This document shows, piece by piece, positions 4,049 through 20,100 of a DNA stretch of 38,671 nucleotides. Every line of letters begins with the position of its first letter. Positions within the stretch are counted from its first letter, which is position 1. Source of the stretch: Alphaproteobacteria bacterium (lineage in GTDB: Bacteria; Pseudomonadota; Alphaproteobacteria; Micavibrionales; UBA2020). Below the pieces are notes generated by a model. The model saw only the letters and a list, made by a program, of their open reading frames with translations. It did no database searches and was not told the DNA's origin. The translations under genes were made by a program, and so were the position numbers. The stretch is taken from assembly GCA_030682495.1 (NCBI GenBank), contig JAUXOC010000061.1:1-38671 (forward strand), read 5' to 3'.

Positions 4049-5179
4049 ATGGCGATGTTTCATTCCCGCAAAAAGCTGCTGCGCGCCATCCGCGAGGGTG
4101 ACGTAGCACTGGTGCGCGAACATCTGATGAATGCCGAACGACTGGACGAATGGCTGGGCGCCTTGAATGACGATGGCTTTCATGCGCTTCATATCGCCGT
4201 CGAGCATCGCCAGATCGCCCTTATCCCCCTGTTGATTGACCACGGTGCAGATGTCGATGTCCGTACGCGCAGTGGCCGCACGCCGCTGATGCTGGCCACA
4301 AAACACCACAGCACAGATCACGCCGATTTGCTGATCGCGCGCGGCGCAAACCCCAAGGCCGCAGACAACGACGGGCTTTCGGTTTTTGGCCATGCCGTTT
4401 ATCACCAGCGCACAGAAGTCGCGCGCCTGATGCTGGATCAAGGTGCTGAAATCGATGACGACAAATCGTTTATGCATGCCTGTTCCAACCGCGACGTTAA
4501 AACCATCGCCCTGCTGATCGAACGCGGCGCGAATACGAAGGTCGTGCAGGGTTCATACAACTATCACCCCGTGCATTACCTTGCGCAGCACGGCAGCGTC
4601 GAAGGTTTCAACGTGCTGCAGGCAGCGAACGGCATTGCCGATCTGGATGCGCGGCTGACGAGTGACGGCAATACCGCGCTGCATATGGCCGCCGTGAACG
4701 GCCATGTTGGCATGGTTGAAATCCTGCTGGCCGCCGGTGCGCGCCGCGATCTTGAAAACAACGAAGGCCTGACCGCCGAAGCCGCCGCGCTCAAAAAAGA
4801 CAAGCGGCATTGCGCCAAAGCCATCCGCGCCGCCGAAGACACCCGCCCCGTACAAAAGCCCGTCGCGCAGGAAGCACCGCAGGGCGCAGCAACGGACGAA
4901 AACTGGCTGCGTGTGGGTGCGCATAGCATCGCGCAGGTGCAAACTCTCGCACCGCTGAACCGCCGCATCACGCATCTGTTCAATTTCGAAAGCCGCGAGC
5001 GCATGACCATCTCGGAGAACCTCAAAACCGGTGCCGAGGTCACGTTGCCGCCGCAATCTTTTGACGATATCGACCGCGCCGCCATCGAAACCGCAGGGGC
5101 CGAGCTACAGCGTCAGGGGGGTACAGTCAACGACAACCTGCCCGGCAAGCCTGCCCTGCGCAAAACATCACAACCATAG
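4049..5179 (+). CDS. ankyrin-repeat protein (376 aa)
   Basis: Residues about 10-263 form consecutive ankyrin-type helix-turn-helix units. The clearest are HALHIAVEHRQ (45-55), RTPLMLATKHH (77-87) and NTALHMAAVNGHV (208-220), with typical LLIDHGAD, LLIARGA and LLAAGA ends. Intervening repeats are degenerate. The C-terminal ~110 residues (264-376) are non-repetitive and include a possible short beta segment (LFNFESRERMTISENL). There is no signal peptide or membrane segment, so a cytosolic protein-binding scaffold is likely. Ankyrin domains mediate protein contacts and do not by themselves indicate function. AAGGA lies 6 bases upstream of the ATG. The gene ends 6 bases from the convergent kinase-like gene. 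Confidence 0.85.
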   Translation: MAMFHSRKKLLRAIREGDVALVREHLMNAERLDEWLGALNDDGFHALHIAVEHRQIALIPLLIDHGADVDVRTRSGRTPLMLATKHHSTDHADLLIARGANPKAADNDGLSVFGHAVYHQRTEVARLMLDQGAEIDDDKSFMHACSNRDVKTIALLIERGANTKVVQGSYNYHPVHYLAQHGSVEGFNVLQAANGIADLDARLTSDGNTALHMAAVNGHVGMVEILLAAGARRDLENNEGLTAEAAALKKDKRHCAKAIRAAEDTRPVQKPVAQEAPQGAATDENWLRVGAHSIAQVQTLAPLNRRITHLFNFESRERMTISENLKTGAEVTLPPQSFDDIDRAAIETAGAELQRQGGTVNDNLPGKPALRKTSQP

Positions 5180-17059: not shown

Positions 17060-17102
17060 GCCCAAGCACTTGATGGCAAAGCTTTGCGGGGCACCAAAAG
17101 AA

Positions 17103-17138
17103 AAACACCGGATTTGATATCCGGTGTTTTTCCTTTTT
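17103..17138 (-). terminator. intrinsic terminator after the DotA/TraY gene
   Basis: ACACCGGAT-TTGA-TATCCGGTGT forms a stem of about 9 bp flanked by an A-run and a T-run, about 45 bases after the stop codon of the DotA/TraY gene. It separates it from yejABEF. Confidence 0.85.
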
Positions 17139-17182: not shown

Positions 17183-19927
17183 TTATGCCTTGGGTGTAAT
17201 ATCCTTCGGATCCTTCGGCGGCTTCGGCGCATTCGGGCTGTTGGTCTTGAAGCTCTGGGCGAGACCAGCAGCAGCATACATCATGCCGGCACTGTTATCA
17301 TCCGTGAAGCTTGTATCCGCACGGCCACCAATCCAACGCATCATCGCATCCGGGATCATGTCCAGCATCTTGAAGGTCGTATTTGCCGCCGTATAAATCG
17401 CGCCGACATAAATGACCGTATAGGCAAGATAGGACATGACCATGAAAAGAGCGTCAACAGAGTCGTCCGCACCCGCGCTATACAACGCCGCCATGCCGTT
17501 GGCGAAGTTCGTGCTGAAGTATATGGCGAAGGCGTTGAAGACCAGCGTTGCGCCAACGTAGCCAATCACGACCAGCACGGGGCGCATCAGCACGTTTAGC
17601 CAGAGTATCCAGACTTCACGCGCGCCCATGCCCTCGCCGACCGACGTCAGGAAGTTCAGTGCGGCGATCGGCACCATCACGACAGCTTCAAAGACCGAAA
17701 TAATCCAGGTCATCGCCGCGAAGGTCGTCCGGATCAGGGGAAGGATCGGGATATAGAAGGAGATCATCGCACCTGCCATGACCCCCATCATCAGTCCGGA
17801 GTTCAGCAGGTTCGCCAGAGCACTGTTCACGCCGCCCGTGAAGTAGCCCAAGCCGTATTGCAACACGCTCAGTAAAATCAGCATACTGCCAAACAGACCC
17901 ATGATGTTGCGACCGATTTCCACCAGTCGCGTAAAGGGATAGACATCGTCGCCGTTGGCAATGTGGAACAGGCCGAGCACAGACGATTGATCCGGCATAA
18001 TGCTCTTCATGACCTTTTGGACAATACCTTTACCTTTTTTGGCCGATTTTGTATCTTTGTGGAAATCGTCCACGTTGACGTCCCGCGTATCCAGCGCAGC
18101 GTTGCGATCAGCATAGGCCGCCTGCTGCGACTCGTTGGTCGTCATCGAGGCGTCCCACCAACGGTCATAGTCCGTCGTAATAAGCTTTACGAACTCCTCG
18201 ATCGTCGGCGGGTTGCCACCTTGCCAGTCCTGAGACGGCTGGGTCCACAACTCGCCCGCATAAACCGTCACGTTTACTTTGCGCGCTTGCAGAGCAAGAT
18301 CGTTCAGCACCTTGAGGTAATAGGTCCAGACCCCCATACCGGCCCAGCCCTTGTTCGTCATATCCGCAACCAGAGGGCCGGTGATATAGCCGGTCAACGC
18401 GGCTTGCGCAGTTCCGTATCTCGCTGTGACGCTGCCGCGCAGAATGCCGACCATATCCTGATGGCACTGAAGCGTCGGGAATCCCTCAGCGTTCACGGGA
18501 CAAGCGGGCGGGGGTGCAACTGCACCGCCGCATCCAACCCCGGCAGCATCTACCGGGTTGGCCGTGCCATCGTTTGGCGCCATGTGTTTACCCACGAAGG
18601 CGCAGCCAAATCCGTGCGCCGTCCGCATAAACACGGAGGTTTCTTGCAGATCAGCCGCCACGGCGTCTCTCATCTGGTCAAGAAAGTTCTCCGTCGCCGT
18701 ATGAAGGTTATCCGCCACACCGCCGCGTCGTTGCATGCCAGCGGTGAGAGCGCTAACGTCCCTCAAAGAGGCCATAAGCCCGCCCTGCGTATATTCAAGA
18801 GAACCGCAGAGATTGGGCGCAGTGTTGTTCGTGTAACTAACAACCTGCGTACCTGTCGCGCGGTTATTTTTTACCGCCTTACGTTCCACCACAAACGATG
18901 GAGATGCGTTCCCCTGCTTCACCGCTTCGGCGTTCCAGGCGACCTGACAGGTCTTGAGGCGCGCCATAGCGTGCACAACAGAAGTCGCGGATTCTGCACT
19001 GAAAGGCGAGAGCAGCGGAGTACCGCCATTAATCACCCCCGTAACATAGGACGACCAAGCGCGTGTACCGAAGTTAGAGCCCCATTCCGCCAGTTTCATA
19101 ACGGCAAACTGACCCGAACTGAAACCCGTGGTTCCCAAGGGAATCATGATACCAAGTGCGAAGACAACGCGAATCGGCGTCCAGACCATGTTGTGGCGAC
19201 CGCCGCCGATCGTGCCCGTTTTGGCGGTATCGACAACGATGGACAGGATCATCCAGAAAATCATCACTGCGGCGACAACAAGGACGCCCGTGTTGTAGAT
19301 CTGCATCAGACCAGTCAGGCCGCTTTGCAGCGCCCCGCCGTTACCGACGGTCGCCTGGCGCAAAACCTTATCCAGCAGCATCAGGCCAAGATCCGCCGAG
19401 GCCGCACTGGTATTCGGCGCCATCAAGTTGCCTTCGTAGGCCGTACGAATGTCAAACAGCGGAGCCGAACCGGCCCCGCCAATCGCTGCACCCATCTTCG
19501 CGATATCGGTATCACTACCAGCCCCCGCATAAGGGGTACCAGGGTGCGAGAAAATCTGCGCGTAGGCTGCCGTCCCCAAGCCAAAAAACACGTTCATCAT
19601 GAACGTCACAATCGCCGCGATAAAGACAGCGATCATCATAATTACAGAAATAAACAGACCCCATTGGCGGGCATCGGCGCGCTGGCTGCGGAGGCTGAAC
19701 CAGGCTTCGCCCATCAATGCGGCGAAGGAGTATTTTTTGACCCCTTCAATCCCGTAGCGGGATGCCGGGTGGTTGCGGTCAATCAGACCGGCCTGCACAA
19801 ACATGAGTGCCAGCGTTCGCATGAAAACGGGCACAATGTGGGCGGCACCGCGGAAGCATAGATGGAACTGCGGCATGAACATAAAGGCTGCTACAGAAGT
19901 ACCCTTGTTATGCTTGGAATCGCTCAT
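17183..19927 (-). CDS. DotA/TraY-family type IVB secretion membrane protein
   Basis: A 914-aa polytopic inner-membrane protein. Hydrophobic segments lie at about 30-48, 90-115, 212-232 and 251-265. A large extracytoplasmic region of about 400 residues with several cysteines (KTCQVAW, NLCGSLEY, GFGCAF, QCHQD) follows, then at least four more segments between about 680 and 870. HNMVWTPIRVVFALGIMIPL (245-264) and the C-terminal NTTFKMLDMIPDAMMRWIGG are hallmarks of DotA (Legionella Dot/Icm) and TraY (IncI conjugation), where the protein sits in the inner-membrane part of a type IVB secretion apparatus. No other dot/icm or tra gene occurs in this window. It has its own good promoter and terminator, so it is a stand-alone unit. 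The family call is firm; a working secretion system is an inference. Confidence 0.87.
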   Translation of the reverse strand: MSDSKHNKGTSVAAFMFMPQFHLCFRGAAHIVPVFMRTLALMFVQAGLIDRNHPASRYGIEGVKKYSFAALMGEAWFSLRSQRADARQWGLFISVIMMIAVFIAAIVTFMMNVFFGLGTAAYAQIFSHPGTPYAGAGSDTDIAKMGAAIGGAGSAPLFDIRTAYEGNLMAPNTSAASADLGLMLLDKVLRQATVGNGGALQSGLTGLMQIYNTGVLVVAAVMIFWMILSIVVDTAKTGTIGGGRHNMVWTPIRVVFALGIMIPLGTTGFSSGQFAVMKLAEWGSNFGTRAWSSYVTGVINGGTPLLSPFSAESATSVVHAMARLKTCQVAWNAEAVKQGNASPSFVVERKAVKNNRATGTQVVSYTNNTAPNLCGSLEYTQGGLMASLRDVSALTAGMQRRGGVADNLHTATENFLDQMRDAVAADLQETSVFMRTAHGFGCAFVGKHMAPNDGTANPVDAAGVGCGGAVAPPPACPVNAEGFPTLQCHQDMVGILRGSVTARYGTAQAALTGYITGPLVADMTNKGWAGMGVWTYYLKVLNDLALQARKVNVTVYAGELWTQPSQDWQGGNPPTIEEFVKLITTDYDRWWDASMTTNESQQAAYADRNAALDTRDVNVDDFHKDTKSAKKGKGIVQKVMKSIMPDQSSVLGLFHIANGDDVYPFTRLVEIGRNIMGLFGSMLILLSVLQYGLGYFTGGVNSALANLLNSGLMMGVMAGAMISFYIPILPLIRTTFAAMTWIISVFEAVVMVPIAALNFLTSVGEGMGAREVWILWLNVLMRPVLVVIGYVGATLVFNAFAIYFSTNFANGMAALYSAGADDSVDALFMVMSYLAYTVIYVGAIYTAANTTFKMLDMIPDAMMRWIGGRADTSFTDDNSAGMMYAAAGLAQSFKTNSPNAPKPPKDPKDITPKA

Positions 19928-19979
19928 GGCTTTACCCCGACTAGAAATACCACACCACCTTCTTCAGGCTTATAAGTTC

Positions 19980-20008
19980 ATCTTACGCCTTTTTCTTAAA
20001 ACCGTCAA
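19980..20008 (-). promoter_or_regulatory. promoter of the DotA/TraY gene
   Basis: On the minus strand TTGACG (20003-20008), a 17-base spacer and TAAGAT (19980-19985) are each 5/6 matches to consensus. The ~90 bases upstream (20009-20100) are strongly A/T-rich with A- and T-tracts, as in UP elements. GGGG lies about 8 bases before the ATG. Confidence 0.8.
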
Positions 20009-20100
20009 ATTTATTGACATTTATGCAAAATTTTCATCAAATTTTATCTAATTTTAACCATCTATTAATTCAATGAAAACAAAGAGAAATTTGAACTTTT

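What the first reader, a model, noticed from the sequence alone, without database searches (positions are those of the whole stretch)
17183..19927. Solitary DotA/TraY gene in a housekeeping region
A full-length DotA/TraY-like protein with its own near-consensus promoter and terminator stands alone between yejABEF and the pyrD/thrC run. DotA normally works with many other Dot/Icm proteins. Its dispersed location suggests either a scattered type IVB system or a repurposed membrane protein.
Basis: partly seen in the sequence, partly recalled or inferred. Interest (0 to 1): 0.62.

Follow-up and report, generated by a model that had tools for sequence, protein, structure and literature searches.

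The report
Channel gene of overlooked predator injector
The isolated gene is a part of a complete type IVB (Dot/Icm-type) secretion machine whose genes are scattered over the chromosome, and nearly every genome of this bacterial order, including the predator Micavibrio aeruginosavorus that was reported to lack such a machine, carries it.

Summary
A full-length DotA/TraY protein (914 aa, minus strand, 17183-19927) sits alone between a HAD/EAL/pyrD/thrC run and yejA, with its own promoter block and a strong terminator. It is not an orphan. [quoted passage not shown] DotD-C-B, IcmT; DotM, DotL. The 'scattered system' reading is right; 'repurposed' is not. The order is that of Micavibrio: DotA is found in 101 and DotH in 98 of 103 genomes at least 90% complete, against DotH in 10 of 382 sampled genomes elsewhere in the class. 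M. aeruginosavorus ARL-13, whose genome paper reports no type IV system, carries three tandem dotA genes, the core cluster and DotL, and no Pfam Relaxase match. dotA was tandemly amplified at least three times in the order. In part of the window's family each copy keeps a private promoter block (upstream region 96.5% identical to a congener, gene about 77%). Most likely DotA is the pentameric inner-membrane gate of a protein-injection machine. That prey bacteria are the targets is inferred, not shown.

The parts
17183..19927 (-). [quoted passage not shown]
   Evidence: TIGR04346 E 3.8e-52; 9ngy DotA by profile E 1.3e-67 and by fold Z 21.4
19418..19927 (-). N-terminal module, residues 1 to about 170, two predicted membrane helices; not matched in Legionella DotA or in the plasmid TraY matches
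   Evidence: hydropathy and alignment; profile match to 9ngy starts at residue 148; plasmid matches start at 172-215 except two partial ones
17258..19414 (-). Conserved DotA body, residues about 172-890: membrane helices on either side of a variable periplasmic domain
19928..20040 (-). Conserved upstream block: TAAAATTTTGCATAAAT-type element (here GAAAATTTTGCATAAAT), TTGACG-17-TAAGAT promoter, ATAAGCCTGAA leader, GGGG ribosome-binding region
   Evidence: conserved in 7 genomes; 96.5% identity upstream against about 77% in the gene; found only before dotA genes in 158 loci
17100..17132 (-). Intrinsic terminator hairpin of dotA
   Evidence: z -6.65; hairpin plus T run at the same place, different sequence, in relatives

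Best explanation
The gene encodes DotA, the pentameric inner-membrane/periplasmic channel subunit of a complete chromosomal type IVB secretion system whose operons are dispersed in this genome. DotA would gate substrates, presented by the DotL-DotM-DotN coupling complex and powered by DotB and DotO, through the DotC/D/F/G/H core. Shown here by homology: the parts, their single-copy status, their conservation across the order, and the conserved private promoter. Inferred: that the machine injects proteins rather than DNA, and that in this order, which contains the obligate predator Micavibrio aeruginosavorus, the targets are mainly neighbouring or prey bacteria. In the window's family, whose dot loci lie beside ankyrin-repeat genes, eukaryotic targets remain possible.
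For: DotA identity. Partner genes in the same genome. DotA in 101/103 and DotH in 98/103 genomes of the order, DotH in 10/382 elsewhere in the class. Same system in M. aeruginosavorus ARL-13, identified by exact genome length. No Pfam Relaxase match in ARL-13 and in 9 more of 20 genomes. The DotA-IcmX pentameric protochannel is described in PMC12857230 and PMC12981334. A type IVB system that kills bacteria on contact is known in Pseudomonas putida (PMC9519443).
Against: No experiment on any member of the order was found. IcmS, IcmW and IcmX counterparts were not established. One Pfam Relaxase match exists in the window's own genome (G000:C66, E 2.8e-7), so DNA transfer is not excluded. The window's organism is a draft genome of unknown lifestyle.
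Confidence: 0.7

Rival explanations
1. The system is an IncI-like conjugation apparatus settled in the chromosome that moves DNA, using a relaxase encoded elsewhere.
For: The gene order dotI-H-G-F-TraQ-TraR-DotN-DotO resembles plasmid tra order; TraQ, TraO and TraP models match weakly; DotO has about 40% identical relatives on thousands of mostly conjugative plasmids; relaxase matches exist in 10 of 20 genomes, the window's own among them.
Against: Ten of 20 genomes, ARL-13 and EPB among them, have no Pfam Relaxase match although the system is present; the own relaxase match lies on another contig; the system is single copy and fixed across an order.
Confidence: 0.2
2. The machine delivers effectors such as the ankyrin-repeat proteins into protists or other eukaryotes, not into bacteria.
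For: Ankyrin-repeat genes adjoin dotI and dotL in this genome and dotI in two relatives; the best-studied type IVB systems act on eukaryotes.
Against: The cultured member of the order feeds on bacteria (PMC3189940); no ankyrin match was seen in the ARL-13 stretches read (a weak test with few references); no translocation signal was tested.
Confidence: 0.25
3. DotA is an orphan repurposed as another membrane protein.
For: It stands alone at this locus between housekeeping genes.
Against: The full set of partner genes is in the same genome, and DotA and DotH co-occur across the order.
Confidence: 0.03

Closest known systems
[quoted passage not shown]
   Same: DotA fold (Z 21.4); DotL, DotM and DotN match their Legionella structures; DotB, C, D, F, G, H, I and IcmT relatives present
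   Different: Operons dispersed; dotA apart from the core genes and tandemly amplified in relatives; extra N-terminal module; short DotG (465 aa against a 1008-position model); no IcmX, IcmS or IcmW found
IncI plasmid transfer system (TraY, TraM-TraU)
   Same: Similar order of core genes; TraQ/TraR-like proteins present
   Different: Chromosomal, fixed in an order; often no Pfam Relaxase match; plasmid TraY matches lack the N-terminal module
Pseudomonas putida IsoF bacteria-killing type IVB system (PMC9519443)
   Same: Type IVB machine in a free-living bacterium; proposed bacterial targets
   Different: That system lies on a genomic island with a known effector and immunity protein; here it is dispersed and universal in an order, with no effector known
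VirB6/TrwI of the R388 type IVA system (PDB 8rt9)
   Same: Next-best solved fold after DotA (Z 10.4); comparable role as pentameric inner-membrane gate (PMC12857230)
   Different: About 270 residues, without the large periplasmic domain

Membership tests
Type IVB secretion system | DotA/TraY inner-membrane protein | tested here: met
Type IVB secretion system | Core complex DotC, DotD, DotH, DotG, DotF | tested here: met
   PF16932 E 4e-71, PF16816 1.5e-37, PF12293 5e-70, DotG NF033900 5e-33 and DotF NF038218 4e-9, the last two below their curated cutoffs
Type IVB secretion system | Inner-membrane DotI and IcmT/TraK | tested here: met
   PF11393 3.8e-36; NF038220 3.9e-25, above cutoff
Type IVB secretion system | ATPases DotB and DotO | tested here: met
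   DotB TIGR02524 1.5e-112, below its equivalog cutoff; DotO by position and by relatives over 99% of its length on plasmids, mostly conjugative, with only weak VirB4-type matches
Type IVB secretion system | Coupling complex DotL, DotM, DotN | tested here: met
   6sz9_A 2.2e-146, 6sz9_B 2.2e-22, 5x1h 1.2e-19
Legionella-type effector-delivering Dot/Icm system | Adaptors IcmS/IcmW and channel partner IcmX | tested here: inconclusive
   Four secreted paralogues near icmT have no family or PDB match; IcmS and IcmW were not searched
Conjugation system (IncI-like) | Relaxase associated with the system | tested here: inconclusive
   Pfam Relaxase in 10 of 20 genomes, none in ARL-13 or EPB; the own match is on another contig; other relaxase families not searched
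Bacteria-killing or predatory type IV system | Translocated toxic effector with immunity, or loss of predation in a mutant | not testable with these tools
   No effector screen or mutant data available

The most novel reading that the evidence does not exclude
The whole order of Micavibrio-like bacteria uses a type IVB secretion system, overlooked in its cultured predator, as its prey-injection device, with DotA repeatedly amplified into tandem paralogues that form alternative or mixed channel rings.
Probability: 0.35. Interest if true: 0.85.

Novelty: new variant of a known kind. Interest (0 to 1): 0.6.

Why it matters
How Micavibrio, an obligate predator that feeds from the outside, reaches the contents of its prey is open, and its genome paper found no type III or IV system (PMC3189940). 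A near-universal type IVB machine in its order gives a concrete gene set for knock-outs. Recurrent tandem amplification of the gate subunit DotA, with each copy keeping a private promoter in part of the window's family, is a natural experiment on what this subunit does.

Tried and rejected
Orphan or repurposed DotA: rejected once the partners were found. A regulon motif shared by the dispersed dot operons: the dotA upstream element was looked for by pattern at the dotI, dotD and dotM loci and not found. RNA structure in the leader: alignment folding gave nothing convincing (-2.8 kcal/mol). IcmX among the secreted paralogues near icmT: no PDB match. Phage origin: no PHROGs match. Recent island: dotA GC 56.8% equals the window's 56.7%. 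DotO: no PDB match, so its identity rests and on gene order.

Full report
Observation. The window is contig 68 of a 2.52-Mb genome, 99% complete. ORF 17183-19927 on the minus strand encodes 914 residues and matches NCBIfam DotA_TraY (TIGR04346, E 3.8e-52, above cutoff); Pfam has no match. A 40-sequence profile matches the solved Legionella DotA over residues 148-889 (9ngy, E 1.3e-67). The AlphaFold model (mean pLDDT 75.8) matches 9ngy at Z 21.4 over 580 residues, with VirB6/TrwI next at Z 10.4. It is the only DotA of the genome.

Surroundings. Upstream lie a HAD hydrolase, an EAL protein, pyrD, threonine synthase and an M32 peptidase; downstream lies a yejA-type binding protein, followed by genes called yejBEF from order and length. 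In most of family f1, and in part in f5 and f6, dotA occupies this same position. In f2, f3 and f7 it often lies beside a different ABC ATPase gene, and in one f7 genome next to dotG-H-I. The solitary position is therefore inherited. GC content gives no sign of an island.

Partners. Contig 10 holds DotI, DotH, DotG, DotF, TraQ-like, TraR-like, DotN and DotO. Contig 11 holds DotD, DotC, DotB and IcmT/TraK. Contig 26 holds DotM and DotL. [quoted passage not shown] DotG, DotF, DotI, DotB and DotD score below their NCBIfam equivalog cutoffs, so these are family-level assignments supported by gene order.

Distribution. DotA is present in 101 of 103 genomes of the order at least 90% complete and DotH in 98 of 103. 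In an even sample of 387 genomes of the class DotH occurs in 15, of which 5 belong to this order. Several relatives are titled Micavibrio. Genome G064 is one contig of 2,481,983 bp, exactly the published length of M. aeruginosavorus ARL-13 (PMC3189940); G063, 2,458,610 bp, is by recollection strain EPB. ARL-13 carries three tandem dotA genes and a cluster dotO-N-TraR-TraQ-F-G-H-I ... TcpQ-icmT-dotB-C-D, with DotI and IcmT above NCBIfam cutoffs, and DotL elsewhere. Its genome paper states that there is no evidence for a type III or IV system. No held paper that I found describes this system in Micavibrio, but the library is partial and public annotation pipelines may already name single genes.

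Amplification. In 10 gene-called f3 genomes dotA occurs as 3-4 tandem genes; in f5 as two genes in three genomes; in genus g2 of f1 as four in G003 and three in G013, while G006 and G014 have one. The tree groups the paralogues within f3, within most of f5 and within f1 g2, so amplification happened at least three times. The tree is a quick one with a short search. The window genome has a single copy.

Promoter block. Upstream of dotA an AT-rich block with TTGACG-17-TAAGAT and a preceding AAATTTTGCATAAAT element is conserved in seven f1 genomes. Against a congener the 172 upstream bases are 96.5% identical, the first 900 bases of dotA 77%, the HAD gene 80% and the downstream region 75%. The core motif was found in 158 loci only before dotA genes, once before each tandem copy in the g2 arrays read, and not at the other dot operons of this genome. 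A terminator follows dotA, and relatives have a hairpin there with a different sequence. Each dotA in these genomes thus looks like a separate transcription unit under dedicated control. What binds is unknown.

N-terminal module. Residues 1 to about 170 carry two predicted membrane helices (31-49, 91-109) and are conserved in the alignment. The match to Legionella DotA starts at residue 124-148. Of 25 plasmid TraY matches listed all but two partial ones start at 172-215, and two plasmid genes checked have only 52-60 residues before the match.

Mechanism. Shown by homology: parts, fold, conservation. From the literature: DotA with IcmX forms a pentameric protochannel that opens for substrate passage (PMC12857230, PMC12981334). 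Inferred: this DotA gates an injection machine. Protein rather than DNA transport is favoured because the system is fixed and single copy and because ARL-13, EPB and 8 others of 20 genomes have no Pfam Relaxase match. That prey bacteria are the targets is inferred from the lifestyle of the cultured member and from the P. putida precedent (PMC9519443). Ankyrin-repeat genes next to dotI and dotL in family f1 leave eukaryotic targets open.

Limits. The genome is a draft. IcmS, IcmW and IcmX counterparts were not established. Four secreted paralogues next to icmT are IcmX candidates only by position and size.

Noticed in passing
window 4049-5179 (+); L033 15279-18805, L034 1-7481, L056 5777-8027: Ankyrin-repeat protein genes, one in the window and clusters next to dotI and next to dotL; candidate substrates of the secretion system, not tested. 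The ones outside L034 4316-7481 and the window were assigned by similarity or sequence look only.
   Followed up: partly
window 19930-20040 (-): Non-coding block upstream of dotA that is more conserved than the genes on either side, and is copied before each tandem dotA in relatives; the binding factor is unknown.
   Followed up: partly
L054 1-5299 (-): Four consecutive genes for secreted paralogues of 408-485 aa beside TcpQ-like and icmT genes; relatives exist in M. aeruginosavorus (L156 691-1830). No family or PDB match; possible VirB5/IcmX counterparts.
   Followed up: partly
L034 15580-15984; L060 4560-6097; L062 14694-15651 and 17029-17406: TraR-like (DUF6750-type) small proteins vary from one to three copies between dotF and dotO.
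   Followed up: no
L070 11089-15051; L069 6438-10562: Some tandem DotA paralogues are much larger (1320-1374 aa) than the window's 914 aa; the anchor-to-anchor body is of similar length, so the extra sequence lies at the ends.
   Followed up: no
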